A stretch of DNA of 64,000 nucleotides from Stenotrophomonas maltophilia. GTDB taxonomy: Bacteria > Pseudomonadota > Gammaproteobacteria > Xanthomonadales > Xanthomonadaceae. Positions 26,377 through 49,331 of the stretch are shown one piece after another. The notes below the pieces were generated by a model. The model ran no database searches. It saw only the letters and a program-made list of their open reading frames with translations, and was not told the DNA's origin. A program made the translations under genes and the position numbers. Location: NCBI RefSeq assembly GCF_002799245.1, contig NZ_NEQV01000004.1, positions 62,001-126,000 on the forward strand, given 5' to 3'. Every line of letters begins with the position of its first letter. Position 1 is the first letter of the stretch.

Positions 26377-26403
26377 CGCGCCGGGGGTCACGACCCCGGC
26401 GCG
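26377..26403 (+). terminator. GC-rich hairpin after the small DNA-binding gene
   Basis: GCGCCGGGGTC-type arms (GCGCCGGGG ... CCCCGGCGC) around TCACGA form a strong hairpin 55 bp after the stop at 26322. No T-run follows, so termination would be weak or factor-aided. Confidence 0.6.
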
Positions 26404-26550
26404 CTTCGGGCTATACGACAGATACCCTGATCGGAATCGTCCCTCAGCTACCCAGCTGCTGTCAAGCCTCTTGGGGCTCGCCTATTCCCAACCCACGATC
26501 CGCCGGAGTGGCAGCCGCTCCTGGGTGGCGAATCGTTGTGGGAGAGTTGC

Positions 26551-28816: not shown

Positions 28817-28876
28817 TCTGGTCATTTTCCCCGGCGAGCGCCGGGAACGATGATTCTGACCGGGCAACGACGGTCG

Positions 28877-33519: not shown

Positions 33520-33560
33520 TCAGTACTCCGGAGATCCAGGCCGGCCACGATGAAGGCGCG

Positions 33561-33578
33561 CGATTAAGTCACGATTAA
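33561..33578. promoter_or_regulatory. PmrA/QseB-type direct repeat operator
   Basis: Two copies of CGATTAA start 11 bp apart, giving TTAA-N7-TTAA, the form bound by response regulators of the PmrA/QseB group. The site lies between dsbD (minus) and the response regulator gene (plus) and could let the regulator control both. Confidence 0.6.
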
Positions 33579-33672
33579 AGGCCCCCCAGGCTGGAGCCAT
33601 GACCCGGCGGTGGCGACGCCGGGTACCCTGCGCTAGGATGCAGCGCGCATCTGGTTTCCGGAGTTGGCATCA

Positions 33673-34338: not shown

Positions 34339-35663
34339 GCCTGCGATTCCGCCTGGTGCTGACAATCGGCATCGCCTTGGCGGTGCTGTGGAGCGTGGCG
34401 GCGGCGTGGATGCTGCGTGACCTCGATCGCAACCTGCAGCATACCCTCGACGACCGGCTGGCGATGTCGGCACGCATGGTGTCCGGACTGCTGGCGCAGG
34501 GCGCGTTGGTGGGCGCCTCGCCGGTAGCGGCGGCTGATGCGGTGACCGTTGCCGGCAGTCGCGGGATGGCGTGCCAGATACGCTCGCTGCGTGGGGAGGT
34601 GATCGCCACCACCCAGGGCGCATCCAGCGCACTGATGGCGACCGACGCGCCGGGCTATCGCACGCGTGAGATCGAGGGTACGGCGTGGCGTACCTACACG
34701 CTGGAGGCGAACGGTTACAGCATTACCACTGCCGACAGTCTCGGTGAGCGTGCCGAACTGAGCCGCCAGATCGCGCTGGCGGCCGGGCTGCCGTTCCTGA
34801 TTGCCGCGGTGGGTGGCTTGCTTGCGTTGTGGCTGGGCGCGGGCCGTGCGCTCGCGCCGCTCGATCGGCTGCGTCGCACGCTTGCGCAACGCCAGCCCGA
34901 TGCCGACGAGCCCCTCGACGCGCAACCAATGCCGGGCGAACTCCGGCCATTGGTCGAATCCCTCAACCACCTGCTGCAGCGCGTTTCCGACGCGGTGTCA
35001 CGAGAGCGCAGCTTCACCAACCATGCTGCGCACGAACTGCGCACACCCTTGACTGCGATCGACACTCACCTGCAGGTTGCGCGGCTGACTGGTGGCGAGG
35101 ACTCACGACGTGCGCTGGCCGATGCCGGTGAAGGCGTGCAGCGTATGCGTGCGACGCTGGACCAGTTGCTGATGCTGGCGCGGGTCGAAGGACGGCTGCC
35201 GTTCGACGACGGACAGTGGATCACCGCCGCGCAGGTGGTGGAGCAGGCGGTGGCGGCCAGCAGTCCGGCGGCCAATGGCCGGGTCGTTGTCGTGGCTGGA
35301 AGCGGTAGTCAGGCGGTGCCGGCGGTGCCTCCCGCGCTGTCCGTGGCGGCGTTGCGCAACCTCGTCGACAACGCGTTGCGCTATTCGCCTCCGGGAAGTG
35401 CCGTAGACCTTGTTGCTGATGCCGATGCCACCACGGTACGGTTCCGTCTGACCGATCGTGGCGCTGGTCTCGAACCTGACGAGTACCGGCAGGCGACGCA
35501 ACGGTTCTGGCGAGGACGCGCGACCGGCAGCGCAGGAGGCAGCGGGTTGGGGTTGACGATCGTCGAGGCAATCGCCGAGCGTCATGGCGGGTACGTGGTC
35601 TTGCGTCCCAGGGAGGGAGGTGGGACGGTCGCGGAGCTCGTCCTGCCGAGGCAGGACGGTTAG
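34335..35663 (+). CDS. Sensor histidine kinase
   Basis: This 442-residue protein has two membrane helices around a periplasmic sensor region (about residues 35-140), a HAMP-like linker, the H box FTNHAAHELRTPLTAID, and an HATPase domain with the N box LRNLVDNALRYSPPG and glycine-rich G boxes (DRGAGLEP and GGSGLGLTIV). Its ATG overlaps the regulator stop. The stimulus is unknown; thiol stress or metals would fit the neighbours. Confidence 0.93.
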   Translation: MSLRFRLVLTIGIALAVLWSVAAAWMLRDLDRNLQHTLDDRLAMSARMVSGLLAQGALVGASPVAAADAVTVAGSRGMACQIRSLRGEVIATTQGASSALMATDAPGYRTREIEGTAWRTYTLEANGYSITTADSLGERAELSRQIALAAGLPFLIAAVGGLLALWLGAGRALAPLDRLRRTLAQRQPDADEPLDAQPMPGELRPLVESLNHLLQRVSDAVSRERSFTNHAAHELRTPLTAIDTHLQVARLTGGEDSRRALADAGEGVQRMRATLDQLLMLARVEGRLPFDDGQWITAAQVVEQAVAASSPAANGRVVVVAGSGSQAVPAVPPALSVAALRNLVDNALRYSPPGSAVDLVADADATTVRFRLTDRGAGLEPDEYRQATQRFWRGRATGSAGGSGLGLTIVEAIAERHGGYVVLRPREGGGTVAELVLPRQDG

Positions 35664-35702
35664 ATTCGGCGGCCGTGGAATGCCTCCAACCCCCGACCCT
35701 CG

Positions 35703-36467
35703 CTAACCTTGGGGGCTTTCCGCCATTTCCTGACAGTACTGGCGAAGGTGCTCCGGCAGGTCCGGAGGACACTGCCCGCACGCCTTGTTACCCGGCACGG
35801 CATAGTCGATGAACTTCGGGTATGGCAGGTTCAGGTTTTCCATCAGCTCGATGAAATCCTCGAGCGTGCGTTCGGCGCCGAGCCGCGGGTTGCGCTGCTT
35901 CTCCTGCGCGATGCTCGATACCCACCGCCCCTGGTAGTCATGCGCCGGGTACACGAGCGTCTCGCCCGGGAGGCCGAACAGCCGACCGCGTACGCTCTCG
36001 TACAGTTCACGCGCGTCGCCGCTCTGGAAGTCCGTACGGCCGCAGCCGTCGATCAGCAGCGCGTCGCCGGTGAACACGCGGTCATTCATCACCAACGCGA
36101 AGTGGTTGTCGGTGTGGCCGGGCGTATGCATCGGGTCTATGCGCACGCCGCCGACCTGCAGGGGGACGCCGTCTTCCATCGGCACGTCGGTACAGGACAA
36201 TGCATCGAGCGCGGGGGTAGCGATGCGGCTGCCTACCTCCCGCCGGAGCATCGACGCCGACGTGATGTGGTCCGCATGAATGTGCGTGTCGATCGTCATA
36301 ACGAGATTCAGACCGAGCTCGTTGACTACCTGCAGGTCGCGCTGCCAGGCGGGCATCACCGGATCCACGAGGGCGGCTTCGCGCGTTTCGGGGCAGGCGA
36401 TCAGATAGGTGTAGGTCGAAGACACCGGCTCGAAGAGCTGGCGGAAGATGGTGGCGGGACCGATCAT
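35703..36467 (-). CDS. Persulfide dioxygenase-like MBL hydrolase (ETHE1 family)
   Basis: This 254-residue protein has the metallo-beta-lactamase motif THIHADH and further ligands in TPGHTDNH, VFTGDALL and YPAHDYQG. The single mononuclear iron site and the SGDARELYESV segment fit the ETHE1 persulfide dioxygenases, which oxidise glutathione persulfide to sulfite. It is the last gene of the bigR operon, with its start overlapping the DUF442 gene. Confidence 0.87.
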   Translation of the reverse strand: MIGPATIFRQLFEPVSSTYTYLIACPETREAALVDPVMPAWQRDLQVVNELGLNLVMTIDTHIHADHITSASMLRREVGSRIATPALDALSCTDVPMEDGVPLQVGGVRIDPMHTPGHTDNHFALVMNDRVFTGDALLIDGCGRTDFQSGDARELYESVRGRLFGLPGETLVYPAHDYQGRWVSSIAQEKQRNPRLGAERTLEDFIELMENLNLPYPKFIDYAVPGNKACGQCPPDLPEHLRQYCQEMAESPQG

Positions 36468-36904
36468 GACCGGGCTCCTTCGTTTTCCGCGAGCGCGACC
36501 ACCGCCGGCTCCAGCGTCGCCAGACCGGCCTCACGGCCGCGCTTGAGCGCCGCTTCCAGCGAGCAGCCGCGGTTGAGTGTCGCGTCAAGCGCGATCATTG
36601 CGCCCACGCGGTTGGAACTCGCGCAATGGATCAGGACCCCGCCTTCGCGGCGCGCATCGTCCAGCGTCTGGCCGAACTCGCGCACCCGGGCTCGGTCGAG
36701 ATCGGCGGCGCCGGCGATCGGCAGCGATACGTAGTGCACGCCGAGCCGGGCGGCCTCGGCGGCTTCGTCGTACTCCGCCGGCTCTTCTGGGGCACGCAGA
36801 TTGATAACCGTACGCACGCCCTCGCGCACGAGTTCGGCCAGATGCGCAGGCGTGGGCTGCCCACCGGCGTAGTGATCTTCAGCGAAGCGCCAGGGTGTGT
36901 TCAT
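36464..36904 (-). CDS. DUF442 phosphatase-like protein, possible sulfurtransferase partner
   Basis: This 146-residue protein has the protein-tyrosine-phosphatase-like loop HCASSNRVG. DUF442 domains are found fused or adjacent to persulfide dioxygenases in sulfide-detoxification operons such as that of Xylella BigR. The catalytic Cys and Arg are both present. It overlaps the ETHE1-like gene by 4 bp. Confidence 0.85.
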   Translation of the reverse strand: MNTPWRFAEDHYAGGQPTPAHLAELVREGVRTVINLRAPEEPAEYDEAAEAARLGVHYVSLPIAGAADLDRARVREFGQTLDDARREGGVLIHCASSNRVGAMIALDATLNRGCSLEAALKRGREAGLATLEPAVVALAENEGARS

Positions 36905-36940
36905 GGGAGCCTCCGGAACGTTTGCGGGGAAGAACGAAAT

Positions 36941-37726
36941 TCAGATCCAGCCGAGTTCACTCGCGGTGCGGTACAGCATGTACACCGCGACGACGACGAT
37001 CAGGCCGGCAAGCACCGTGTTGAGCACGCCCTTGCGGTCGCCCAGGCGTGTGGCGAGGCGGGCGCCAAACAGACTGCCGACCGCGCCGCCGCCGATGAAC
37101 GCCACCGCAAGCGACCAGGCGACCAGTCCGGAGCTCGCGTAGCTCAATGCGGTGGTCAGTCCGAAGGCGGTAACGGCGAGCAGCGATGAACCGACCGCGA
37201 ACAGGATCGGCATGCCGGTCGAGGCGATCAGGCCCGGTACTACCAGAAAGCCCCCTCCAATACCGAAGAAACCCGACAGGAGCCCGGTGACCGCGCCCGA
37301 ACCCAGCAGCTTCGGCGCGTTGCCCCGATTGAGCACCACCGCCGGATCCCCTTCACTTCCGCGCGGGCGGAACATCATGCCGGCGACCACGAGCATCAGG
37401 AGCGCGAACAATGCAAGCAGCTGCTGCCCGTCCATGGCCTTGCCGAGCATCGCCCCGAACCACGCGCCCAGCACGCCGGCGATAGCGAACGCCGCGGCGC
37501 AACGCCACTTCACGTTGCGCTTGCGGGCATGGTTGGTCAGGCCGATAAGTGCGTTGGCCGCAACCGCAAGCGCGCTGGTGCCGATCGCCACATGCGGGTC
37601 GCGCACCCCGACGAGGTAGACCATGAGCGGGACCGCGAGAATGGAGCCGCCGCCACCGACCAGCCCGAGCGTGAAGCCGACGACGCCGCCGGAAATGACC
37701 CCCATCACTAACTGGAACGTGGTCAT
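36941..37726 (-). CDS. TauE/SafE-family permease
   Basis: This 261-residue protein has eight or so membrane helices and two glycine-rich repeats, GLVGGGGSILAVPLMVYLVG and SGFFGIGGGFLVVPGLI, typical of the family that moves sulfite or other sulfur anions outward. Its start overlaps the bigR stop by 3 bp. In BigR operons this permease is thought to export sulfite formed by the dioxygenase. Confidence 0.88.
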   Translation of the reverse strand: MTTFQLVMGVISGGVVGFTLGLVGGGGSILAVPLMVYLVGVRDPHVAIGTSALAVAANALIGLTNHARKRNVKWRCAAAFAIAGVLGAWFGAMLGKAMDGQQLLALFALLMLVVAGMMFRPRGSEGDPAVVLNRGNAPKLLGSGAVTGLLSGFFGIGGGFLVVPGLIASTGMPILFAVGSSLLAVTAFGLTTALSYASSGLVAWSLAVAFIGGGAVGSLFGARLATRLGDRKGVLNTVLAGLIVVVAVYMLYRTASELGWI

Positions 37727-38067
37727 TGGACAGCCTCCTGGCTGCCACAGTAGGCGGCGTATAGCGTATCGAGCACGCTTGCAGCAGGGCCCTCGGCTAG
37801 CGCGTAGTAGATGGTCTGCGCCTCGCGACGCGTCGTGACGAGCTGCATCTCGCGCAGTACGGCCAGGTGCTGCGACAGGGCGGACATGCTGAGCCCGGTA
37901 ATCGGCTGCAACTCTCCTACCGAAGCCTCGCCCTCGACCAGCTGGCACAGCACGAGCAGGCGTGCCGGATGGGCCAGTGCCTTCAACAGTGCGGCCGCTT
38001 CATTGGCATGCTGCGCCATCTGCTCGGTCGAGGGCATCGGACGTATCTTCTTTGATGAACGGGCCAT
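37723..38067 (-). CDS. bigR: ArsR-type repressor, BigR/SqrR-like
   Basis: This 114-residue winged-helix protein has two well-placed cysteines, one in LLVLCQLVEGE and one in YAAYCGSQ, which in BigR and SqrR form a di- or trisulfide when sulfide-derived persulfides appear, releasing DNA. The DNA-binding helix is in GLSMSALSQHLAVL. It is divergent from the blh-yeeE genes and heads the permease-DUF442-dioxygenase operon, the usual BigR context. Confidence 0.85.
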   Translation of the reverse strand: MARSSKKIRPMPSTEQMAQHANEAAALLKALAHPARLLVLCQLVEGEASVGELQPITGLSMSALSQHLAVLREMQLVTTRREAQTIYYALAEGPAASVLDTLYAAYCGSQEAVQ

Positions 38068-38090
38068 GGCGGATGTAGTTTAGTAAGTTC

Positions 38091-38119
38091 TTGACAAGGA
38101 CAGGTGACGAATGTAATGT
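38091..38119 (+). promoter_or_regulatory. Sigma-70 promoter for the blh-yeeE operon
   Basis: TTGACA (38091-38096) is followed after 17 bp by TAATGT (38114-38119). It lies in the 87-bp gap between bigR and blh and is the likely target of BigR repression. An AT-rich stretch (AGTTTAGTAAG) overlaps the -35 side. Confidence 0.65.
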
Positions 38120-38154
38120 AGCAGTACCTAAAGTACAGAGCAAGAAGCTGTCAA

Positions 38155-39027
38155 ATGAATCCGCAGGTGCAGAGCTTTTACGACCCGGCCACGTTCACCT
38201 TCACCTACGTGGTCTACGATCGTGACGGTGGCCATGCCGCCATCGTCGACCCGGTGCTCGACTACGATCCCGCCTGTGCCCGAACCTCGACCGCCTCGGC
38301 CGACCGCGTGCTCGCGTTCGTGCGCGATCATTCGCTGATCGTGGACTGGATCCTTGAAACCCATGCGCATGCCGACCACCTGACGTCGGCGGCATACCTC
38401 AAACGCGAAACCGGCGCGAAGGTCGCGATCGGTCGCGGTATCACCCAGGTGCAGGAGCGCTTCAAGGCGCTGTTCGGGATGGAGCCGGAGTTCGCCACCG
38501 ACGGCCGCCAGTTCGATCGGCTGTTCGCCGATGGAGACACGTTCGCCATCGGCGAGCTCGAAGCGCGTGCGATCGCGACGCCCGGTCACACCGACGATAG
38601 TCTGACCTATCTCGTTGGTGACGCCGCGTTCGTGGGCGATACGGTGTTTGCCCCTGAAACGGGCACCGCGAGAGTGGACTTCCCAGGGGGCGACGCGCGC
38701 AAGCTCTACCGATCGATCCGCACCTTGTTCGATCTGCCCGCCGACACCCGCCTGTTCCTGTGCCACGACTACCCGCCGGCCGAGCGCGAGGCGCATCCGC
38801 AGAGCTCGCTCGACGAGCAGAAGCAGCGCAATGTGCATGTGGGCGGCGAGGCAGATGAGGAGACGTTCGTGAAGTTGAGGACCGAACGGGATGCAAGACT
38901 GGCGGCGCCCAAGCTGATTCTGCCGGCGTTGCAGGTGAACATTCGCGCTGGCGAGCTGCCGCCGACGGACGCGAACGGCATCCGCTACCTGCGGCTGCCC
39001 CTGAACCAATTGGGAGGTGAGGCATGA
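38155..39027 (+). CDS. blh: MBL-fold hydrolase, Blh/persulfide-dioxygenase-like
   Basis: This 290-residue protein has the metal-binding motif THAHADH and ligands in TPGHTDDS, AFVGDTVF and LCHDYPP. It is larger than the ETHE1-like protein coded at 35703 and matches the Blh type found beside bigR in Xylella and Agrobacterium. A role in sulfide or persulfide oxidation is likely. The start follows the promoter by about 36 bp. It overlaps yeeE by 4 bp. Confidence 0.85.
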   Translation: MNPQVQSFYDPATFTFTYVVYDRDGGHAAIVDPVLDYDPACARTSTASADRVLAFVRDHSLIVDWILETHAHADHLTSAAYLKRETGAKVAIGRGITQVQERFKALFGMEPEFATDGRQFDRLFADGDTFAIGELEARAIATPGHTDDSLTYLVGDAAFVGDTVFAPETGTARVDFPGGDARKLYRSIRTLFDLPADTRLFLCHDYPPAEREAHPQSSLDEQKQRNVHVGGEADEETFVKLRTERDARLAAPKLILPALQVNIRAGELPPTDANGIRYLRLPLNQLGGEA

Positions 39028-39440
39028 CCACGTGGATGATCGCCCTGGCAGGCGGGGTGCTGATTGGACTGTCCGCGACGTTGTTGCTGTGGCTCAACGG
39101 ACGGGTCGCGGGCGTCAGCGGCATCCTCAACGGCGTTCTGTTCCCGAAGGCAGGTGATGTGTCGTGGCGCGCCATGTTTTTGCTGGGCTTGATCGTCGCC
39201 GCGGGCCTATACATGGCACTGGTGCCCGGTGCACCACTGCCGCGGACGGACTATTCGCGAGTCGGGCTGGTGGTCGCCGGGCTGCTGGTGGGCTTCGGCA
39301 CGCGCATGGGCAACGGCTGCACGAGCGGCCACGGCGTGTGTGGGCTCGGCCGACTGTCCATGCGCTCGCTGGCGGCCGTCCTGACCTTCATGGCCACGGC
39401 CATTGCAACCACCTTCCTTGTGCGCCACGTCTGGAGTTGA
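39024..39440 (+). CDS. YeeE/YedE-family sulfur transporter, first half
   Basis: This 138-residue membrane protein has the motif [17 protein letters not shown], whose cysteines are used by YeeE to pass thiosulfate. It has about four helices and, with the next gene, makes up the two halves that are fused in full-length YeeE. Overlaps with both neighbours indicate one operon. Confidence 0.88.
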   Translation: MTTWMIALAGGVLIGLSATLLLWLNGRVAGVSGILNGVLFPKAGDVSWRAMFLLGLIVAAGLYMALVPGAPLPRTDYSRVGLVVAGLLVGFGTRMGNGCTSGHGVCGLGRLSMRSLAAVLTFMATAIATTFLVRHVWS

Positions 39441-39856
39441 TGATGAAGTTCTCGATTGCCGCGCTGCTGTCGGGTGCGCTGTTTGGTCTGGGGCTGGCAA
39501 TGTCGGGCATGACCGACCCCCGCATCGTGCTCGGCTTCCTCGACGTGTTCGGAGATTTCGATCCGACGCTGGCGTTCGTCCTCGGCGGCGCCGTCACCAC
39601 CACCGGGCTGCTGTTCCGCTTGGTGCTGCGCCGTGGCAGCCCGGTGCTCGCCGATACGTTCCAGCTGTCGAACCTGAAGCAGGTCGACCGCAAGCTGCTC
39701 GGCGGTGCGGCACTGTTCGGAATCGGCTGGGGTATCGCCGGCTACTGTCCAGGTCCTGCACTCGCGGGCCTGGGGATCGGCTCGGTCGAAGCGCTGTGGT
39801 TCATCCCGGCCATGCTGGCTGGCATCCTGTTGCACCGTGTCGTCAACCGCGCCTGA
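39440..39856 (+). CDS. YeeE/YedE-family sulfur transporter, second half
   Basis: This 138-residue membrane protein carries the second half motif GIAGYCPGPALAGLG, also with a sulfur-handling cysteine. ATG at 39440 overlaps the first half's stop by one base. The pair probably moves thiosulfate or another sulfur compound in the sulfide-response operon. Confidence 0.88.
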   Translation: MMKFSIAALLSGALFGLGLAMSGMTDPRIVLGFLDVFGDFDPTLAFVLGGAVTTTGLLFRLVLRRGSPVLADTFQLSNLKQVDRKLLGGAALFGIGWGIAGYCPGPALAGLGIGSVEALWFIPAMLAGILLHRVVNRA

Positions 39857-39865
39857 GGTTATGCC

Positions 39866-40405
39866 ATGAAGCCTATTCCATTGCTCTTCCTTGTCGTTGC
39901 GCTCGCAGGCCCCGGCTGCGCCTCCGCCACGTACCCGACTGCACTGCCGACCGTTGCGGATGCGGTGTCACCTGCGCCGGGCATCGTGTCGGCGGGGCGG
40001 CTGGATGCCGACGACATCTCACGCGTGCGTGATGCTGGCATCCGCCACGTCATCGACCTCACCTTGGATGCGGAGACGCCAGATTTCGACGAGGCGGCAG
40101 CCGTCCGCGCGGCCGGCCTTCTGTACTCCAACCTGCCATTACGCGGTGCAGTGGATCTCACCCGTGAGAACGTGATGGCGTTTGATGCCATTGTTCGAGA
40201 CGCGAAACGTCCGGTGCTCGTGCACTGTGCCAGCGGCAACCGTGTCGGTGCGATGGCAGCGCTCCGGGCCGCATGGGTGGACGGAAAGGAGGCCGATGAA
40301 GCGATCGCGATCGGAAGAACCTGGGGGCTCAAGGGTCTTGAGGAAGAGGTGCGCCGCAGGATCGAGGCCGACGCTTCCCAGGCCAGGAGCAAGGTCCCGG
40401 GCTAA
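39866..40405 (+). CDS. Exported DUF442 phosphatase-like lipoprotein
   Basis: This 179-residue protein has a signal peptide with a lipobox-like end (LAGPGCAS) and a DUF442 domain with the loop HCASGNRVGA. It is the periplasmic counterpart of the cytosolic DUF442 protein at 36464. It closes the blh-yeeE-yeeE operon. Confidence 0.8.
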   Translation: MKPIPLLFLVVALAGPGCASATYPTALPTVADAVSPAPGIVSAGRLDADDISRVRDAGIRHVIDLTLDAETPDFDEAAAVRAAGLLYSNLPLRGAVDLTRENVMAFDAIVRDAKRPVLVHCASGNRVGAMAALRAAWVDGKEADEAIAIGRTWGLKGLEEEVRRRIEADASQARSKVPG

Positions 40406-40431
40406 CGACCGCTGCGTGCCGGGTCCGGTCA

Positions 40432-40849
40432 GTGCCGGACTGCGTCCATGATCCGGTAAGCGTTCGCGCCGGCGACCTGCCGTTCTTCGTACCCGGCACC
40501 GAGGGCGTGCTGATACATCCGAAGGTAGCCCCCCAAGACGACGAGCACGTCATCACAAAGAACTATCCGAACTCGTTCCACAAGACGGACCTCAAGGAGA
40601 CACTCGATTCCGACGGCATCGAATAAGTCACGGTTATTGGCCGATGAGCCACATGTGCATCGACGCGACAACTTGCGCCGCGGCTATTTTGGTTACAAGA
40701 CAACGGTCGTGCACGACGCCTGCGCAACCCGCGAGCTCGAGTTCGATGGGAAGAGCGTGCCCGCCGAGCAAGTGCATACGGCCCTGATGTCAACGCTCGC
40801 ATTCGGGTATGCGGAAGTCATTTCAGCCGACACCTATCTGGCCAAATGA
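40432..40849 (+). pseudogene. Isochorismatase-family hydrolase remnant
   Basis: The C-terminal two thirds of a cysteine hydrolase survive in two frames. The first piece reads DLPFFVPGTEG...VITKNYPNSFHKTDL and ends in a stop; then SHMCIDATT appears and shifts frame to GYKTTVVHDACATREL. The N-terminus is missing. At least one frameshift lies near 40680-40690. Confidence 0.75.
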
Positions 40850-40927
40850 CATCTGTTGGGGCGTGCAGCGCGATTTGCTTGGCGGTAAGTCATCGGCCGC
40901 TCTCTCATCCCGGGCGTTGCTACGTGA

Positions 40928-41085
40928 TGTCCGCTCTTGGCCGAAAGGGGGCATCGGTGCCATGTCAGGTGTCCAACTGACTGGCGGCGGTGTCGAGTTC
41001 GTTTGGCGGCGCTGTCAGGGGTCGTTGATCTGATCAAAGTTATCGGCGACCTGTGGGAACGATGGTTCTGACCGAGCAACGATGC
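40928..41085. mobile_element. IS21-like right-end remnant with a palindromic word
   Basis: The stretch 41025-41085 (CGTTGATCTGATCA ... GGGAACGATGGTTCTGACC) matches the sequence after istB at 28813-28870. A TGTCCGCTCTTGGCCG word lies at 40928. No istB coding remains. This remnant borders the N-terminal half of the split ATPase. Confidence 0.6.
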
Positions 41086-41146
41086 TGGTCACCAGGCTCG
41101 GTCGCGTGATCATCTTCTGCTGGTCCAGGTGATCAATCTCATCGGT

Positions 41147-41581
41147 ACCCGCAGATTCCAGGACACCTAGTAGGTTCAAGCTAGGCGGGGTCTCAGCCAG
41201 CTTCGATAGCAATCCCCGAGCTGCGGAGGACAGCAGCGACACGGCTGATGATGAGCCGTACATGCCCTCTCCACGCATCCCAACGTAGCGGTAGTTCTTC
41301 TGCGCCTTTGCACTCCGCCTTGGCGGCGCTGGAAACTTGTCGAAGGGACTCGTTGAAGCCGCAACGACCACAGGATGTGGGGGATGACTAAATTGCCCAG
41401 TGCCGATTGGGCCGTAATACTCGCTAATCCGAAGCCGCGCAATATCCGACAACAGCCGGCTTTTTCCAACTCCGTTCTCTCCCACAACAACTGTATATGT
41501 GTTATCCCTTGGGCTGACTTTAGCCTCGTCTACCAGACGCACCAGCTGACCATCATGGTAGATATTGATCACTCGTTCCAT
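41147..41581 (-). pseudogene. PtuA-like ATPase, N-terminal part (split gene)
   Basis: About 145 codons hold the start of an ATPase with Walker A VVVGENGVGKSRLL, then STSPFDKFP and NYRYVGMRG, segments seen in Septu-type ATPases. After LLGVLESAG the sequence becomes unrelated and ends in IS-like DNA. The missing part matches that present at 24055-24960. The ATG is preceded by GGGAGAG. Confidence 0.75.
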
Positions 41582-41925
41582 TGGAGGCTCTCCCTGTCTA
41601 TAGGAAGAATGTTGGCAGATACTGGTTAGCTATCCAAGGTCATGGTCCCTGCGGCCTAGGACGCTCCCATTCCGGCGATGGGAGATCTCGGCAGAGAAGT
41701 GCAGGGCCTTCCTGGCCCAGAGCTAGCGCCACCCATCGCCGCTCCTTGACCGATCTCCCCACGGAAGGCTGACAGGTAAGATCCGGGCTGACACCGAACG
41801 CTTGGGCCGTGCCCTTAGGCCCAAAAGCTCGTGCGCCCTACCTAAATGTGCCTTCGGGAAGGCATAATCTGGCGGGAGAGGTAAATATCAACCGCCTGCC
41901 AATCTAGTTGACCGGGGAGAAGGAA
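41582..41925. other. Intergenic stretch between divergent genes
   Basis: No gene is seen. It should hold the promoter of the split ATPase (minus) and that of the membrane protein gene (plus). Confidence 0.5.
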
Positions 41926-42561
41926 GTGTCTGCAAAAGGAGGACTGCTGAGATGGCTCGGAGCCTTCATAGCTTTCGATATGGCGCTGCTAACCTACGTC
42001 TTGATTCCCGATTGGCGTTGGGGTGCTGCCGACCCGAAGATGATCATAGGTGGGCTAACGACAGTACTTTCCCCTCCAATGCTCTACATGATGACCTCAA
42101 TTCTCTCGCCAGACATGAAGGCTGCACTCGTCTTCTGGAGAACCAAGCATCACTTGCCTGGCTATTCGGCATTCTCCAGGCACCTAAGAGAAGACTCGAG
42201 AATAGACGGTGAAGCAGTTGCGGCGCGGCGGGGTCCTCTTCCGTCAGACCCGGATGAACAGCAGCGCCTGTGGTACAAAATTTACCGCGACCATCGCAAT
42301 GACGAGGCAGTTCTTGATGCCAATCGTCGCTTTCTCACTTTTCGGGATCTGGCAGTAGTGTCACTCCCGGTTACCGTGGTGGCCCCCATCGCGCTCACGT
42401 TCTTCGATCTCGGCTTCGCACGAGGCCCCGTGGCCGCAATCTTCTGCCTGCAATACCTTGGCGCAAGTGTCGTCGCGCGCGTAGCGGGCGTACGTCTGGT
42501 TCGAACTGTTCTGGCGATAGAGGGCGCGCAGCCAGGTTCCGCTGCTCCCGGTTCGGCATGA
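41926..42561 (+). CDS. Four-helix membrane protein of unknown function
   Basis: This 211-residue protein has two N-terminal hydrophobic helices (WLGAFIAFDMALLTYVLIP and IIGGLTTVLSPPMLYMM), a charged central loop of about 80 residues that should face the cytosol, and two C-terminal helices. GTG 41926, spaced well from GGAG, is preferred to a TTG 18 bp upstream. It is convergent with the WYL gene (11-bp gap). I do not recognise a family. The topology would suit a membrane effector, but there is no direct evidence. Confidence 0.65.
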   Translation: MSAKGGLLRWLGAFIAFDMALLTYVLIPDWRWGAADPKMIIGGLTTVLSPPMLYMMTSILSPDMKAALVFWRTKHHLPGYSAFSRHLREDSRIDGEAVAARRGPLPSDPDEQQRLWYKIYRDHRNDEAVLDANRRFLTFRDLAVVSLPVTVVAPIALTFFDLGFARGPVAAIFCLQYLGASVVARVAGVRLVRTVLAIEGAQPGSAAPGSA

Positions 42562-42572
42562 CTGGCCCTTTA

Positions 42573-43475
42573 CTAGAAATCCGGCCGCACAATTGAGGGA
42601 AGGTAGGCAGCTAGTTCGGTGCGGTTTGCAAGGACAATCTGCTGCGATCTTGCCGCTTCGTTCTCTTGTTCTTTAAGACCCAAGCGTGCCAACAAGTAAT
42701 AGCCCATTGCTTGTCTGCACTTCAGCTTCAATTTGCCTTCTGACATGCCGTAGTCAAGTTCAATCACTCGCCGCGCGCCCTCCGAGAGAGCAGGGTTTGG
42801 TGCTATCTCAATATCGATCACGCGGTTCCATTGTACGTCGCCACTGATCGTGGCTTGAGCGTCTCCAGATGGCTTCGCCAGCAAGATTCGCGCAAAGAGG
42901 AAGTCACGGTAGTCGTTGCGCAAGTGACAGTAGGCTCGGATGTGCCATCGGAATCCGTCGTAGGCCAATGCCAAGGGTGAGACGCACCTTACATCTGGCT
43001 CAGCACGTGCCATGGTCTGGTAGGTGATCTCCAGAGCTCTGCCGGACTGAATTGCAGACAAGGTCTCCCGTAGTAGCGAGACATCGACCCGGCGGCTAGG
43101 GAAGCTCACGATCTCTGAAGGCGGCGGGTTACCCAAGAAGCTCAAATCGGGACTCAGCAAGCCGGTAGTGATCGCATGCAGTTCCGCCAGATAGCGGGCG
43201 CTCGATCCTTCGGTGAAGATCGGCGCATATGTCGGCATCGCCACATAGGCACGCTCCTTGGCGTCGTACTTCGCATTCAGCGGGGCGCGTGCGGCGTATT
43301 CAGCAAAGTCCAGAGTCGCCTGAGGGGGTGAGATCTTGAAGAACTCCACTAGGTCAGAACGATTGACCTTACCTGCCCACAAGAGCCGAGAGTCAATGAA
43401 TTCTAGCCGGCGTGCCTGACCCCAGCGCTCTTTGCGGGCGGACACATCCTTTAAGTCATTGAATTTGTTAGGCAT
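42573..43475 (-). CDS. WYL-domain transcriptional repressor (CapW/BrxR-like)
   Basis: This 300-residue protein has an N-terminal winged HTH (ERWGQARRLEFIDSRLLWAGKVNRSDLVEFF), a WYL domain (ALEITYQTM... SPLALAYDGFRWHIRAYC) and a C-terminal WCX extension. This layout is that of CapW and BrxR, regulators that control CBASS, BREX and related defence operons. It is divergent from the MBL/E2-E1-JAB operon with a 107-bp gap that contains an inverted repeat. ATG 43475 follows GGAAG. Confidence 0.87.
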   Translation of the reverse strand: MPNKFNDLKDVSARKERWGQARRLEFIDSRLLWAGKVNRSDLVEFFKISPPQATLDFAEYAARAPLNAKYDAKERAYVAMPTYAPIFTEGSSARYLAELHAITTGLLSPDLSFLGNPPPSEIVSFPSRRVDVSLLRETLSAIQSGRALEITYQTMARAEPDVRCVSPLALAYDGFRWHIRAYCHLRNDYRDFLFARILLAKPSGDAQATISGDVQWNRVIDIEIAPNPALSEGARRVIELDYGMSEGKLKLKCRQAMGYYLLARLGLKEQENEAARSQQIVLANRTELAAYLPSIVRPDF

Positions 43476-43498
43476 GTGAGAATCTTCCAAAAATATCC

Positions 43499-43536
43499 AC
43501 TACTTTTTATGACCTCATAGTTTTTCGTAGTATAGT
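43499..43536. promoter_or_regulatory. Candidate operator of the WYL repressor
   Basis: The palindrome TATGA-CC-TCATA (43508-43519) is framed by ACTAC (43499-43503) and GTAGT (43527-43531). TATAGT (43531-43536) fits a -10 element for the plus-strand operon. The dyad lies midway between the divergent genes, as in CapW-controlled loci. Confidence 0.6.
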
Positions 43537-43582
43537 GCGTCTGAAGGCCACGGGGTGGTCAACACGATGAGGCGCAACTCGA

Positions 43583-44758
43583 ATGAGCAACATCACGTTC
43601 TTCCCGGTCGACTGCGGTGACATGACCCTGATCCGCCTCGCGGATGCTGCGGTCAGTTCTATCCTTATTGACGTTAACATCCGCGCGGCGGCGGACGATG
43701 CTGACGACACTTCTGTACGTGATGTGGCTTCGGACCTGCGGGGCAGGCTGCAGCGGGATGGATTTGGCCGGCCCTATGTCGACGTCTTCATGTTGAGTCA
43801 CCCTGATCAAGACCATTGTCTCGGTCTGGCCCGTCACTTCTACCTGGGCCCAATCGAGAACTATCCTGATGACAACAAGGCGGACAACGACAAGCGGATA
43901 GTCATCCGGGAAATCTGGTCGTCTCCGTTGGTTTTCCGCCGTCGTTCAAAGGACCATGTTCTCTGCGACGACGCATTGGCTTTTAATCGCGAGGCTAAGC
44001 GGCGGGTAACGCAGTTCCGCCATGGTCTAGGGAACAAGGACGGCGAGCGCGTACTTCTGATGGGTGAGGACGTTGACGGCAAGACGGATGATCTCGCCCC
44101 GATCGTCATCCAGCCTGGTACTACCTTCAACCGTATCAATGGGGCTAGTAGCTCCTACTTTGAGGCAACGCTGCTCGCGCCAATCCTCTGCGATGACCCG
44201 GACATTGTTGAGGAGCTGAAGAAGAACAATTCCAGCATCGTCATCAACTTCGCCTTGGACTCTGTCGAGGCCGGACGGCCGCGCTGCAAATTCTTGTCTG
44301 GCGGTGATGCGGAAGTTTACGTATGGGAGCTTCTCTGGGCTGAGTATGGCAAGAGTGGAGAGCTGCAGTACGACCTTCTTCAGGCACCGCACCATTGCTC
44401 GTGGCATTCGCTGTCATGGGATAGCTGGTCCGAAAAGGGCGAAAAGGCCCAAGTGTCACCTGAAGCGCGAGCTGCCCTAGGTCAGGCGAAGACAGGTGCG
44501 GTGATTGTGGCTAGCTCAAAGCGGATCCTGGATGACAAGAATGATCCGCCGTGTATTCGCGCTAAGACGGAGTACGAGAGCATCCTGGCTACTGTGGGCG
44601 GAAAATTCATGTGCACCGGAGAGTATCCGCACCATTGGGAGCAGGCTCCGCTGGATCTCCAGGTTTCATTCGGAGGTGTCCGAGTCAGGAAGGCAGGCGC
44701 AGGCTCTTCTACGGTAGCGGCACTGGCTGCCGCGCCGCGCGCGGGCAGCCCTCAGTGA
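43583..44758 (+). CDS. Metallo-beta-lactamase-fold protein (ComEC-like) of the ubiquitin-like locus
   Basis: This 391-residue cytosolic protein has the metal-binding HPDQDH (residues 73-78), a later LSGGDAE segment and APHHCSWHS, which fit the MBL hydrolases related to the ComEC nuclease domain. The function of this group is not known; nuclease or other phosphodiesterase activity is possible. The stop overlaps the next gene's GTG (44755), so the two are tightly coupled. It occupies the place of the CD-NTase and effector in CBASS. Confidence 0.83.
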   Translation: MSNITFFPVDCGDMTLIRLADAAVSSILIDVNIRAAADDADDTSVRDVASDLRGRLQRDGFGRPYVDVFMLSHPDQDHCLGLARHFYLGPIENYPDDNKADNDKRIVIREIWSSPLVFRRRSKDHVLCDDALAFNREAKRRVTQFRHGLGNKDGERVLLMGEDVDGKTDDLAPIVIQPGTTFNRINGASSSYFEATLLAPILCDDPDIVEELKKNNSSIVINFALDSVEAGRPRCKFLSGGDAEVYVWELLWAEYGKSGELQYDLLQAPHHCSWHSLSWDSWSEKGEKAQVSPEARAALGQAKTGAVIVASSKRILDDKNDPPCIRAKTEYESILATVGGKFMCTGEYPHHWEQAPLDLQVSFGGVRVRKAGAGSSTVAALAAAPRAGSPQ

Positions 44759-47007
44759 CTTCAGATTTTCTCGACTGGGGGGTCAGCATCCCCAAAGATG
44801 AGCCTGATCCATTCCGCGATGGCCGCATGCGGGCCCTCCTCAGGGCCTGCAATGCACACGCGGATATCAATGTTGTGGAGCTGAGACGGCTTGAACACCC
44901 ATTCGTTGCAGAGATCATAGTGGCCGATGTTGGTGATGGCGCCGTGTCCCCTGGGAACGACGCAGGGATTCACCGCATCGAACGAATTGCACTTCTCTAC
45001 CGAACTGGTGCCCGATTCCCATTCGAAGCTCGACCTCTCAGGAAGAGCTTCCCGAGAGCGCTGCATCAGTACTCTACGGGTGACCAAGGACCGCCGTCGC
45101 TCTGCATTATGGAGGGAGACTGGGAGCTTGCGGAACATAGGTTCACGCCAGAAGCGCTACTCGAGACCCTTCTAGCTTGGCTGGAAAAGACGGCAGATGG
45201 GACGATTCATGGGGCCGACCGCGGCTTGGAACCCGTCTTCTACAGCCTTGGGCAGTGCCTAATGCTTCCGCCGGACTTTGCGGAGGCTTTGAGCGATCCG
45301 TCCAAGGAGCTCGCTTTTGTGGACGCGTGGGAGTGGGAACGCGGAGTGACATATCGCACGCGCATTGTCGCGTCTGCTTCTCCGGCACGGGCGCCGCATC
45401 GCATACTCATCATGGATGCCGCCCCAATCGCGCACCTGCCACTCTCCTCGCCGCCGTCATCGCTTGGCAGCCTTGAAGAGCTGCTTGTAGCTAAGGGAAG
45501 CTCGCTGATGCCGGGACTGGCCAAATCAGTTCAAGAGGCTTTCCGGCGATGCTGCAACGCCAACATCCAGCCGGGTCAGGGGCGAATCATCTTGATCGTT
45601 CGTCTTCCGCGGCTACGAGACGGTGAAGTGGTGAGCATCGACTCGATGGGCTTCAGAATCGACTGTGACCTGGTCGCGCTAGGATTAAAAATACAGGCAC
45701 TTGGCCGGTACGGAGAGAACGATACAGTCCAGCCAGTCCTTATACTTGGAGAAGGACCGAGGTGGCCAGAGAAGGGTTGGCAAGATATCGAAGTGCTGCA
45801 CATCGACGTCAGCCGCAGTCTGGATCGAGACGAGGCGAAGCGATGGTCGGGAATTGAAGACGGTGAGTTCCGCGGCGTAATTGCAGGAGTGGGCGCCCTG
45901 GGAAGTGCCCTTATCGATATATGGTCACGCTCCGCATGGGGTCACTGGGACTACATCGATCCCGACGTTCTAGCTCAGCACAACGTCGTCCGGCATGTCG
46001 GCACCCAAGATCAGGTTGGGTTGCCAAAAGTCGAAGTAGCCAAACGCCATGCGCGGCGGACGCTCGGGTTTGCCGACCCAGATGTGAAAGCGTTGCAGAA
46101 CCGGGCCTCGGACCTTGATACAGAGGCGGTACATGCGTGCCTGAAGCGTGGCGATCTCCTCATCGATGCATCAACAACCATCCAGGTAACTAGGTCGTGG
46201 TCTGGAGCGGACCTACCTCGAGGTATGGCAACCTTCTTGACGCCGTCGGGAGATGGCTGCGTGCTTCTTGCTGAGGACAGCTCGCGGGAAATCAGAGGCG
46301 CATCGCTTGAGGCCCAGTACTACAGGGCGATCATCCAGCAAGATTGGGGAGCAGTGCACCTCGAAGCAAAGGGTCGCCCACTTCGAAGTGGGGCGGGCTG
46401 TCGCGATGTCTCTGTAGTCCTAGGCTACGACCAGGTGTTGCGAAGTGCATCATTACTTGCAGGGCAGATCAGGAATAGGTCAATGCTTTCCGGTGCAAGT
46501 ATCGATGTATGGGAGTCTTCGAGCGACGGCAGCATTCGTCACATTGAGGTGGCAGCCAGACGAACCTTTTCGAAAAAGGTAGGAGACTGGGAGATTATCT
46601 GGGACGAAGGTCTCTGCGAACAACTCCTAGGGGAACGAGCCAACTCGCTTCCACTCGAAACCGGAGGAATCCTTCTGGGCGTCGTCGATTTCAAGCTCAA
46701 CACAATCCATCTCGTGGACGGCCGTTCCGCACCAAAGGACAGTGTGTCAACTGAGGCGGACTTCCAGTGCGGTAGCTGCGGCGTGCAGGAAGACATTACT
46801 GAGGCCCAGCGTCGAACAGCCGGTATGGTGCTTTGGATAGGTGCTTGGCACTCGCATCCCCAGGGTGTGAAGGCAGTTCCAAGCATCCAGGATCAGGAAC
46901 TTCTGTCACATCTCTGCACAAGGCTGGGTGCGCACGGACTACCAGCGGTGATGCTCATAGCGGGCGAGAACGGCATCGACGTTTTCCTGCAAGCGAAAGG
47001 GAGTTAG
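44755..47007 (+). CDS. E2-E1-JAB fusion protein (Cap2-Cap3-like ubiquitin-type enzyme)
   Basis: This 750-residue protein joins three activities. Residues 1-180 look like a bacterial E2 domain with a cysteine candidate at Cys117 in PPSLCIMEGDWE. Residues 370-600 are an E1/ThiF domain with the nucleotide loop GVGALGSA, YIDPDVLAQHNVVRH and LLIDAS, and a catalytic cysteine candidate Cys549. Residues 630-750 are a JAB/JAMM isopeptidase with Glu635, His699-x-His701, Ser710 and Asp713. E2 and E1 cysteines are placed as in Cap2 of type II CBASS, and the JAB matches Cap3. GTG 44755 overlaps the MBL stop. Confidence 0.88.
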   Translation: MTSDFLDWGVSIPKDEPDPFRDGRMRALLRACNAHADINVVELRRLEHPFVAEIIVADVGDGAVSPGNDAGIHRIERIALLYRTGARFPFEARPLRKSFPRALHQYSTGDQGPPSLCIMEGDWELAEHRFTPEALLETLLAWLEKTADGTIHGADRGLEPVFYSLGQCLMLPPDFAEALSDPSKELAFVDAWEWERGVTYRTRIVASASPARAPHRILIMDAAPIAHLPLSSPPSSLGSLEELLVAKGSSLMPGLAKSVQEAFRRCCNANIQPGQGRIILIVRLPRLRDGEVVSIDSMGFRIDCDLVALGLKIQALGRYGENDTVQPVLILGEGPRWPEKGWQDIEVLHIDVSRSLDRDEAKRWSGIEDGEFRGVIAGVGALGSALIDIWSRSAWGHWDYIDPDVLAQHNVVRHVGTQDQVGLPKVEVAKRHARRTLGFADPDVKALQNRASDLDTEAVHACLKRGDLLIDASTTIQVTRSWSGADLPRGMATFLTPSGDGCVLLAEDSSREIRGASLEAQYYRAIIQQDWGAVHLEAKGRPLRSGAGCRDVSVVLGYDQVLRSASLLAGQIRNRSMLSGASIDVWESSSDGSIRHIEVAARRTFSKKVGDWEIIWDEGLCEQLLGERANSLPLETGGILLGVVDFKLNTIHLVDGRSAPKDSVSTEADFQCGSCGVQEDITEAQRRTAGMVLWIGAWHSHPQGVKAVPSIQDQELLSHLCTRLGAHGLPAVMLIAGENGIDVFLQAKGS

Positions 47008-47824
47008 CTCGCTTAACACGCAGACGAGTTGCCGAGCGGTTTGATGGCGCAGGCGGGACTTGCTGGCTTCGCCTCTGCGCACATGGGGTGGCCGCTTGGC
47101 GTGAGCGGATACATCTCCAGTTCCGATATGACCTGGTGCTGGCGGCCTTCCGTCAGCGCCCCATCAGTGATCAGGGGAGCAGTTGGAGTCTGCACTGGGC
47201 ATCTGAACTGGAGAGCCCGCTCTTCGTCTAAGGCCATCACCCCGGGGTGGTAATGATTGATCAAGCAGCTCTGGACGGCTGATATGCTCGGGTCCTGATA
47301 GATGTCGAATGGCAGCTTCTGGCCGGAAGCGGACATCAGGATCGCTGCTCCACTGGCTGTGCATAGCTCAGCCTTGAGGCGCTGCCGCGCTCTGGTCCTG
47401 CTCCACGCGCCGGCCAAGCTCGCCTTTGCCTTGCTGCCGCTTCTGGCCGAAAAGACTGTCGATTGATGCGCCCAGCCGCTAGGCGGCCTCCGCTACCAGG
47501 CGGCCGTACTCAACGATCTGCTGGATCGCCTCGATCTTGAACTCATGGTGCACCGATTCATGCCCACGACCACCTCTGCCTAAGCCATAGTTTATGGCTT
47601 CGATATTTCCGCAGAATCCGGCGGGATTGCAAATCGCTCAGAGGGATGCAGAAATCAGAATACTCCAGCGGGAGGTGCTTGACCTCGGCGTTAAGTGGAG
47701 GCGTTGCAGGACGATGGAAATGCTGTCGGTCGCCAGGCTGAATAATGGGACTTAGCGAGACGCAAGGCTCTCGCTAGAGTGGCCGGGATCGTTCTGTATT
47801 ACCCGACCCCGGCCCAAAGGGGCG
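47008..47824. other. Decayed intergenic DNA with repeats
   Basis: No intact gene is seen in this 817-bp stretch. It holds an IS3 remnant (next entry), a TGTCCGCTTCCGGCC palindrome on the minus strand at 47310-47335 and a small hairpin AAGCCATA/TATGGCTT at 47582-47600. Confidence 0.5.
47360..47560 (-). pseudogene. IS3-family OrfA transposase remnant
   Basis: The minus strand codes for EFKIEAIQQIVEYG..VAEAA, an in-frame TAG at 47481-47479, then RLGASIDSLF, matching the HTH region of IS3-type OrfA proteins. QRLKAEL in another frame further on resembles the next OrfA part. The element has lost the rest. Confidence 0.65.
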
Positions 47825-48034: not shown

Positions 48035-48590
48035 TGCGTATTTATCCCCCTTCGTTCGCCAATGTATGGCCGACCGGCGTTAGGCTGGTCGGCCTCCCTG
48101 GAGGCAGACTGCGATCCTCGTGTCGGAAGACAGTGAGTCTGCGTCTCCTGTCTTCGATCTTAGGTTTGCCGAGTCTACTGAACAAGTGGTTAGGGGCTGG
48201 GATGCGGGCAAGCGATTGTCAAATTGGCCGGATCAGCTCGGAGTCGTGTGCCGCCTCTAGCCGGAGACGCTCGGCCACGCGCATAGGGCCCTTTTCTGGA
48301 TCCTCGCATACGCGATCGATCTCGGGTTTGGTGGGAGCATGAGCGTGTGGTATCACGGAGAGGGTTAGGGCGTGCCGTAACGTCGGTGTGATACGACACA
48401 AAAGCACCAAAAGTAGCATCGACGCCGGATTGGGCCGCCAGAACTTGCCCAGCACGGCTGCTTTTCCGGGGACCAGCCTGTTGAATGGGTGTAGGATTTT
48501 TCCTATTCCAAGTTGAAACCGGATTGGCGACACTTCGCGCAATGCCGCTCTAAGCGGTCCATTCCTGGTTGGCCCATTCAGGGGAAAAAC
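48035..48590. other. Intergenic stretch without a supported gene
   Basis: An open frame on the minus strand (48219-48542) has no family resemblance I can name and is not called. No repeats of note were seen. Confidence 0.4.
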
Positions 48591-49331
48591 ATGCCAGCTT
48601 TTGCGGTCGGAGATCGGGTATACGTTCCGTGCCTTCTTGTGCCCGACCTTGAGGATCAGGACACCGCGCTTTACAGGACAAAGATTTCATCCATCAACGC
48701 TAGGTCTGCAACTGTAGAGGTACCACGTGGTGCTGTTTCAGGGCCCATTGGAGTAGGCCGGCTCCACTCGGATGTGGGCATTCTCATCATCAATATCGGC
48801 GACTTCGTTAGCGAGGCCGCGTTACTTGACCCACTCGCGAAGTCAGTGCTTCAGTTTTGCCGCCTGCTCGTTCCAGACGACCAGGTTATCGCGGTGAAAG
48901 TCCGAAGCGTTGCTGAGTTGAAAGCGTTCTGGATCAAGAACCATAGAGCTTACACGCACGTTATCCTCATCGGGCATGGAAACAGGGACTGTATTGGCTT
49001 TGGCGTGGATGGTGACGTCAATCTTCCAACATAAGATGATGCCCTAAAGGATCGTGGTGCCAAGCCAAAATCATTTATCTCTCTCTGTTGCAAAACAGGT
49101 TATGCAGATTTCGGAAAGACCTTTTCGCGGTTCACCATCTGTAAAACCTTTGCAGCGCCGTTCCACTCGGTTCATGGCGCGACAGCCTCTCAGTTTTGCC
49201 AAACCATGCTCACTTGGATGCTAGTTGACGGGAGGACCACCAAAGCTGCCTTCAGGAGCGCGCGCAACTCGGTTCCGGGCGGCGTCAGCTTTCGCCTATG
49301 GCAGAATGGTGAGTTGTCGGCGGGCAGGTGA
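48591..49331 (+). pseudogene. Possible CHAT/caspase-like protease gene with in-frame stop
   Basis: The frame runs from ATG 48591 to TGA 49331 with a single TAA at codon 148 (49032-49034). Before the stop lies VILIGHGNRD (His129), after it ISLCCKTG (Cys166 or Cys167). A His-Gly followed by a Cys in a hydrophobic strand is the dyad pattern of CHAT and caspase-like peptidases. The stop separates the two catalytic residues. A 245-residue protein would result without it. Confidence 0.55.

What the first reader, a model, noticed from the sequence alone, without database searches (positions are those of the whole stretch)
41926..47007. Ubiquitin-like conjugation locus without cyclase: WYL repressor, MBL hydrolase and E2-E1-JAB fusion
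One 750-residue protein unites E2-like, E1-like and JAMM isopeptidase domains, with all key residues apparently present (Cys117, Cys549, Glu635, His699, His701, Ser710, Asp713). It is translationally coupled to a ComEC-like metallo-beta-lactamase protein and divergent from a CapW-like WYL repressor with a palindrome between them. The enzymes match Cap2 and Cap3 of type II CBASS, yet there is no CD-NTase, no CBASS effector and no ubiquitin-like protein. Comparative genomics has noted MBL genes beside bacterial E2/E1/JAB genes, but I know of no experimental account of this exact set. It may be a defence system whose conjugation target is the MBL protein itself or a host protein.
Basis: partly seen in the sequence, partly recalled or inferred. 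Interest (0 to 1): 0.88.

Follow-up and report, generated by a model that had tools for sequence, protein, structure and literature searches.

The report
Tailed hydrolase in bacterial ubiquitin-like operon
This is a copy of a known but little-studied bacterial anti-virus operon, and its sequences suggest that its metal-dependent hydrolase is itself the protein that the operon's ubiquitin-like enzymes attach to targets, through a conserved tail.

Summary
In detail: window 42573-47007 encodes a CapW repressor, a ComEC-like metallo-beta-lactamase (MBL) protein and a 750-aa E2-E1-JAB fusion. It is not a new system: it is operon type 6a of Iyer 2006 and far exceeds NCBIfam's '6A-MBL' cut-offs. What was missed is the likely mechanism. 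MBL proteins beside the fusion end in a flexible tail with Arg-Ala-Gly (76 of 77 relatives; about 2% expected), last or followed by 1-9 residues (window: PRAG+SPQ). Another enzyme clade has His-Gly tails; tail class fits the enzyme tree better than the MBL-core tree. CD-NTases of type II CBASS show the same kind of end. I infer that the MBL is the conjugated protein, with the JAB domain trimming and detaching it. 'No effector' is doubtful: a 211-aa membrane protein (41926-42561) is linked to such operons elsewhere, and many relatives carry a patatin or another membrane protein. No SMODS cyclase was found in the genome. Shown: sequence, folds, linkage, tail-enzyme co-variation. Inferred: conjugation, trimming, effector role. 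New member of a known kind; the mechanism may already be in print elsewhere.

The parts
41926..42561 (+). 211-aa membrane protein (three segments pass a hydropathy threshold), candidate effector, called TM-A here
   Evidence: Inside the 5.18-kb stretch shared with X. citri plasmid pCuR; homologs next to CapW or after the fusion gene in several other loci, but not in all; in 101 relatives found only in genomes that carry a full-length fusion; no Pfam, PADLOC or NCBIfam match
42573..43475 (-). CapW, wHTH-WYL repressor, 300 aa, divergent from the MBL gene
   Evidence: PDB 7tb6 CapW E 6e-64, 7tb5 3e-60, BrxR 7t8k 3e-35; Pfam WYL
43498..43538 (+). conserved promoter/operator block with predicted -10 TATAGT at 43531-43536
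   Evidence: Aligned with few changes in three distinct relatives (L092, L135, L002; L093 is the same record as L002); promoter-like match; inverted repeat not above shuffles
43583..44758 (+). MBL-fold hydrolase, 391 aa; H73, D75, D77, H78, D242, H271 invariant (their role as metal ligands is from general knowledge of the fold)
44699..44755 (+). disordered MBL tail, residues 373-391, ending PRAG-SPQ
   Evidence: pLDDT under 50 for 373-391; RAG in 76 of 77 relatives
44738..44746 (+). Arg386-Ala387-Gly388, proposed conjugation end of the MBL; SPQ (44747-44755) is the proposed removed extension
44755..47007 (+). E2-E1-JAB fusion (Cap2 plus Cap3 in one chain), 750 aa

Best explanation
A 6A-MBL anti-phage operon that works like type II CBASS with an MBL hydrolase in the place of the cyclase. 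CapW keeps it off; damage or infection releases it (inferred from published CapW work). The MBL is made with a flexible tail ending PRAG-SPQ. The JAB domain trims it to ...RAG; the E1 domain adenylates the new C-terminal glycine and takes it as a thioester (Cys549), passes it to the E2 cysteine (Cys117), and the MBL is attached to a target, most likely on lysine. Attachment activates or positions the MBL; the JAB domain can reverse it. The MBL, a ComEC-like hydrolase, then acts on nucleic acid or a nucleotide, and the neighbouring membrane protein (a patatin lipase or another membrane protein in relatives) delivers the cell-killing step. Shown: genes, folds, conserved active-site residues, linkage, tail conservation and its co-variation with the enzyme. 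Inferred: all chemical steps, the target, the MBL substrate, the effector role.
For: Fusion is Cap2-like and Cap3-like, with the named catalytic residues invariant (121 of 121 rows). MBL tail RAG in 76 of 77 loci, KAG in the other; 51 of 77 end exactly at RAG, 25 have 1-9 more residues; all six Arg, four Ala and four Gly codons occur. Chance by shuffling the last 30 residues about 1.9%; RAG is absent from the last 15 residues of 80 of 80 fusion proteins, 16 of 16 CapW-like and 66 of 66 downstream proteins. The tail is disordered in the model. Tail class fits the enzyme: 9 of 9 HG-tail loci form one enzyme clade (support 1.0; 3 changes in all, the minimum) but lie in a 31-tip MBL-core clade (5 changes). 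A search of 398 genomes with an HG-class enzyme gave three strong new hits, and all three have HG tails; the next three by score (one is the window) have RAG. In CBASS the CD-NTase C-terminus is conserved as Gly or Ala in operons with full-length Cap2 and Cap3 and not in other architectures, and is the conjugation end. No SMODS cyclase match in the genome. Third genes: 31 of 66 downstream open frames form one patatin-type cluster; the membrane protein is linked to the operon.
Against: No conjugate, thioester or phage phenotype was tested. The anti-phage label is NCBI's; its source could not be read. The window's MBL ends in Gln, three residues after the Gly, so it needs a trimming step that I only infer. 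The MBL-core tree also groups the tail classes better than any of 500 shuffles (5 changes against at least 8), so shared descent of the MBL explains part of the pattern, and the difference from the enzyme tree is 5 against 3 changes. Two of 120 listed MBL homologs fit no tail class. The membrane-protein gene is convergent with capW, not in the MBL transcript; of 8 plasmid loci of its relatives opened, 4 lie by the operon (one of them fragmented), 1 by a JAB-annotated piece only, 2 by a different MBL with no fusion gene annotated, 1 by none of these (its stretch is cut at the record start). 14 of 80 loci have no downstream frame by my criterion and 12 of the 66 fall in no cluster.
Confidence: 0.72

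Rival explanations
1. The MBL is itself the killing effector, a DNase kept inactive until conjugated or deconjugated, as the MBL nucleases of Hachiman, AVAST and canu are until their partner protease acts; the membrane gene is an accessory.
For: MBL nucleases in defence operons can be gated DNases (PMC12799240, passages); weak profile kinship to LmuA and to RT-associated MBL and to Avs1a (on the Acinetobacter homolog); ComEC fold; Iyer 2006 describes usually two genes.
Against: 31 of 66 downstream open frames form a patatin-type cluster and further clusters are membrane proteins, so killing seems often delegated; the MBL sits in the place of the CD-NTase.
Confidence: 0.35
2. The RAG tail is a docking peptide that the E2-E1-JAB protein reads without linking it; the MBL is a stoichiometric partner or regulator.
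For: Co-variation with the enzyme would also arise from non-covalent recognition.
Against: The motif ends in Gly and sits at or within 9 residues of the C-terminus in 77 of 77 loci, as a conjugation end requires; E1 and E2 cysteines and JAMM residues are invariant.
Confidence: 0.1
3. A conventional beta-grasp Ubl encoded elsewhere is conjugated, with the MBL as its target.
For: Other bacterial operon types (6d, 6e; Bil and Bub, recalled) use a Ubl.
Against: No neighbouring gene put through Pfam matched a Ubl family; the conserved Gly tail is on the MBL; row 6a of Iyer 2006 lists no Ubl. Very short frames near the operon, and ThiS or MoaD of the host, were not examined.
Confidence: 0.05

Closest known systems
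Operon type 6a (Iyer, Burroughs, Aravind 2006, PMC1779556; passages read) and NCBIfam '6A-MBL' system (NF058523, NF058524)
   Same: Triple-module E2-E1-JAB protein next to a specialised MBL; both NCBI models far above cut-off
   Different: The passages read name usually two genes and no MBL tail; here a CapW and a linked membrane protein are present and the MBL tail is identified as the likely conjugation end
Type II CBASS (CD-NTase, Cap2, Cap3, effector)
   Same: Cap2-like E2-E1 and Cap3-like JAB; conserved Gly at the end of the partner protein; CapW control; effector-like third gene
   Different: No CD-NTase found; Cap2 and Cap3 fused; MBL hydrolase in the cyclase's place; conserved RAG rather than a variable penultimate residue; short extension after Gly in about a third of relatives
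Bil and Bub operons
   Same: Bacterial ubiquitin-like conjugation with E1, E2 and JAB (recalled); CapW or CapH+CapP beside 219 of 544 Bub operons (PMC13373217, passage)
   Different: They encode beta-grasp Ubl proteins (recalled); none seen here
Protease-activated MBL nucleases (HamM, CanC; PMC12799240, passages)
   Same: ComEC-like MBL in a defence operon
   Different: Activation there is by proteolysis; here a conjugation enzyme is encoded instead
CapW/BrxR regulators (PMC9122588, passages)
   Same: Sequence match over nearly full length, divergent from the operon, conserved block over the predicted -10
   Different: Sits beside a cyclase-free operon

Membership tests
6A-MBL / operon type 6a | one protein with E2, E1 and JAB in that order | tested here: met
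6A-MBL / operon type 6a | adjacent specialised MBL above NF058524 cut-off | tested here: met
   410 bits against 220
6A-MBL / operon type 6a | anti-phage activity | not testable with these tools
   label from NCBIfam only
Type II CBASS | CD-NTase (SMODS) in the operon or genome | tested here: not met
   no PF18144 match in the whole genome; control rings in 3 of 14 genomes, 2 over the cut-off; other cyclase families not searched
Type II CBASS | Cap2 and Cap3 folds | tested here: met
Type II CBASS | partner protein ending in Gly or Ala | tested here: inconclusive
   on the MBL, not on a cyclase: RAG or KAG in 77 of 77 relatives, 52 of 77 ending exactly there; the window's MBL ends in Gln three residues after the Gly
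Bil / Bub systems | Ubl gene in the operon | tested here: inconclusive
   none of the neighbouring genes put through Pfam matched a Ubl family; very short genes and a fold search of each neighbour were not done
CapW | wHTH-WYL-WCX protein, gene next to a defence operon | tested here: met
   7tb6 E 6e-64 over residues 13-289
CapW | binds a palindrome over the -10 | tested here: inconclusive
   conserved block over the predicted -10; inverted repeat not above shuffles

The most novel reading that the evidence does not exclude
6A-MBL is a second ubiquitin-like system whose attached protein is not a beta-grasp Ubl: an enzyme, the ComEC-like MBL, is matured by its JAB domain like a ubiquitin precursor and conjugated through a class-specific C-terminal Gly tail (RAG, HG and others) that co-evolves with the E2-E1-JAB protein, and its output is carried out by exchangeable effectors (patatin or membrane proteins). 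One tail class (NKPAGFA, seen in P0223 and P0228) nearly copies the tail of a CBASS cyclase (KPGGFA), which suggests that the Cap2 handle can be moved between unrelated enzymes.
Probability: 0.7. Interest if true: 0.82.

Novelty: new member of a known kind. Interest (0 to 1): 0.64.

Why it matters
[quoted passage not shown] The tail evidence points to one. The record titles name many bacterial phyla, and 249 plasmid records match the MBL homolog P0190, 127 of them in Klebsiella. It gives a defined residue (Gly388) and a defined trimming site (388/389) to test, and suggests that an enzyme used as a modifier is a more general design in bacterial immunity.

Tried and rejected
Palindrome as evidence of an operator: best inverted repeat no better than shuffles; I keep only the conserved block. 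Nucleotide constraint (stop/start overlap) as the cause of the terminal Gly: rejected, since all synonymous codons occur and RAG is kept where the stop lies further on. MBL paralogs as control: ten second MBLs in these loci lack a terminal RAG, though six of them (one cluster, some near copies) also end in Gly and one has RAG 15 residues before its end. A natural MBL-fusion chain for modelling: P0107 (1166 aa) looked like one but its MBL part is garbled to the eye, so it was not used. VIA-align rows cover mainly residues 355-616 of the fusion; the JAB match rests on Foldseek and profiles. Partner enzymes of the NKPAGFA-tailed MBLs were not found among the rows listed nor in the phage records, where P0228 has no match. 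The Pfam family tried (PF18138) was the wrong one (HORMA, not the cyclase); replaced by PF18144. The inverted repeat at the ends of the 16-kb insert is 11 of 13, the best of many pairs tried, so it may be chance. Literature: ten searches listed no paper that, by title, abstract start or the passages opened, treats the MBL tail or conjugation of the MBL; this covers open-licence PMC only, without preprints, and the source behind the NCBIfam 6A-MBL names could not be read, so the mechanism may already be in print.

Of these 80, three lack an MBL hit: L014 and L057 are cut by the contig end, L028 has an acetate-kinase-like fragment there (identified by eye). Downstream 'genes' are open frames of at least 100 aa, some of which may not be genes. 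The tree sets hold 72 of the 77 genome loci with an MBL plus the window and 11 plasmid loci (84 tips), then 8 more (92 tips); five genome loci with short or open frames were left out, as were the plasmid loci L135, L137, L142, L143 and L150. The HG sample is nine loci, five of them reached through one HG-tailed MBL or the membrane protein on plasmids. Only 2 of the 31 patatin-cluster members, plus L141, were put through Pfam.
Full report
WHAT IS THERE. The divergent pair capW (42573-43475, -) and MBL (43583-44758, +) is followed by the E2-E1-JAB gene (44755-47007, +), whose GTG start overlaps the MBL stop. Pfam identifies the fusion and the WYL protein, NCBIfam the fusion and the MBL, and the PDB the WYL protein as CapW. 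The named catalytic residues of the fusion are invariant in 121 of 121 rows, the window's protein counted twice, and H73, D75, D77, H78, D242 and H271 of the MBL in 91 of 91.

IT IS A KNOWN OPERON TYPE. Iyer and colleagues (2006) list row 6a: a triple-module E2-E1-JAB protein, in most operons next to an MBL (PMC1779556, passages). NCBIfam names both proteins as parts of an 'anti-phage 6A-MBL system' (549 bits against 320; 410 against 220). [quoted passage not shown] The genome has no PF18144 (SMODS) match. Of 101 relatives, 6 (the window's genome included) have a full-length enzyme and two more have remnants; of 297 genomes of the family 7 pass the NCBI enzyme cut-off, and of 369 genomes drawn from the class 5 pass the MBL cut-off; 249 plasmid records match the MBL homolog P0190.

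THE TAIL. Among 80 reference-genome loci found by the enzyme, 77 have an MBL frame directly upstream; two of the other three are cut by the contig end. In 76 of 77 the MBL ends in, or 1-9 residues after, Arg-Ala-Gly; in the last it is Lys-Ala-Gly at the end. 51 of 77 end exactly at RAG. Six Arg, four Ala and four Gly codons are used, so the constraint is on the protein. Shuffling the last 30 residues gives RAG in the last 12 in 1.9%; the last 15 residues of the fusion (0 of 80), CapW-like (0 of 16) and downstream proteins (0 of 66) lack it. Among the 120 listed MBL homologs (of 2644 found), 85 have an [RK]AG tail, 29 HG, 4 PxGF[AG] and 2 none of these.

THE TAIL GOES WITH THE ENZYME. Five HG-tailed MBLs share 46-56% of their core with the window's MBL, yet their enzymes share only 21-27%; in the pairs printed, RAG-tailed MBLs of 24-29% core identity come with enzymes of 29-35%. 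On 92 tips the four tail classes need 3 changes on the enzyme tree (the minimum; 9 of 9 HG loci in one clade, support 1.0) and 5 on the MBL-core tree, where the HG loci lie in a clade of 31. Both are below every one of 500 label shuffles (at least 9 and 8), so descent of the MBL explains part of it, and the HG sample is small. A search of 398 genomes with an HG-class enzyme brought three strong new loci, all with HG tails (AHG+CRNKDS, GHG, KHG+DDD); the next three by score, one of them the window, have RAG.

WHY THIS MEANS CONJUGATION. In type II CBASS Cap2 forms a thioester with the C-terminal Gly of the cyclase; the last residue is conserved as Gly or Ala in operons with full-length Cap2 and Cap3 and not in other architectures; Cap3 cuts at that end (PMC10097602, passages). 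A B. cereus cyclase ends in KPGGFA and is linked through that end to PspA (PMC11153139, passages); two listed MBLs end in NKPAGFA. The MBL of 6A operons shows the same kind of mark beside a Cap2-Cap3 fusion. Where residues follow the Gly, as SPQ here, a maturation step is needed; the JAB domain is the obvious candidate. This is inference: nothing was measured.

A THIRD GENE. The 5.18-kb stretch 41857-47033 is about 90% identical to X. citri plasmid pCuR and includes 41926-42561, a 211-aa membrane protein. Its relatives lie next to capW (L002, L004, L023, L135, L149, L150) or after the fusion gene (L138, L147, L151), in differing orientation. In 101 relatives it occurs in 5 of the 6 genomes with a full-length enzyme (one a fragment on another contig) and in none of the other 95. 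Against: two plasmid relatives sit by a second MBL with no fusion gene annotated, one by none of these in a stretch cut at the record start, and one beside only a JAB-annotated piece. In 66 of 80 loci an open frame of at least 100 aa follows the fusion within 250 nt; by all-against-all search 31 form one cluster (patatin by Pfam in the two tested), 11 and 4 two membrane-protein clusters, 6 a second MBL, 2 a pair, and 12 none. The membrane families also appear beside capW. This resembles the arrangement of CBASS effectors. The representatives tested of the membrane families and of the main patatin cluster have no PADLOC or NCBIfam match; the Rhodococcus patatin has weak ones to CBASS-type phospholipase effectors and an anti-phage phospholipase.

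CONTROL. CapW identity is firm. [quoted passage not shown] Here a 41-bp block over the predicted -10 is largely conserved in three distinct relatives, but its inverted repeat is not significant.

MECHANISM AND RIVALS. I give 0.72 to the CBASS-like scheme with the MBL as attached protein. The main open point is what the MBL does: nuclease effector, as in protease-activated MBL systems (PMC12799240, passages), or producer of a trigger for the membrane or lipase protein. Neither excludes conjugation.

NOVELTY. As a locus it is a new member of a known kind. The tail, its co-variation with the enzyme and the third gene were not met in the listings of ten searches or the passages opened, but the literature behind the NCBIfam names could not be read.

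Noticed in passing
window 24993-41110: A roughly 16-kb insert with possible imperfect terminal inverted repeats (11 of 13) and a Mu-type transposase frame (26536-28092) carrying DsbD, thioredoxin-like, sensor kinase, TauE and MBL genes; it splits a ptuA-like Septu gene whose two parts (23465-24965, 41154-41650) are contiguous on X. citri pCuR.
   Followed up: partly
L028:1962-2630: In a Lysobacterales MAG the MBL is replaced by an acetate-kinase-like fragment (judged by eye) that ends ...GASLPPRAG just before the fusion gene: a deletion junction or an assembly artefact that leaves only the MBL tail.
   Followed up: partly
P0223, P0228: MBL homologs ending NKPAGFA, nearly the tail of a B. cereus CBASS cyclase (KPGGFA); their enzymes were not found.
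   Followed up: partly
L141 and L143: Rhodococcus and Bradyrhizobium plasmids with MBL, E1/JAB-type protein and a patatin-like phospholipase (in L143 with a gene on the other strand between), with tails PVGFG+R and PARAG.
   Followed up: partly
L148:4140-5998 and L152:4158-5974: A different MBL next to a relative of the 211-aa membrane protein, with no fusion gene annotated: possibly a separate two-gene system.
   Followed up: no
G021:C1:77894-78382 and G009:C8:199082-199213: Remnants of the fusion gene in two relatives of the same genus, one with stop codons: the operon is gained and lost.
   Followed up: no
L027, L028, L031, L043, L045, L052 downstream frame: A second ComEC-like MBL (PADLOC candidate PDC-M48B for the L027 copy) follows the fusion gene.
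   Followed up: no
L039 MBL tail: Two RAG motifs in one tail (PPRAG-LESRP-LRAG).
   Followed up: no
window 48513-49034: Open frame of 173 aa without a Pfam match; not tested as a gene.
   Followed up: no
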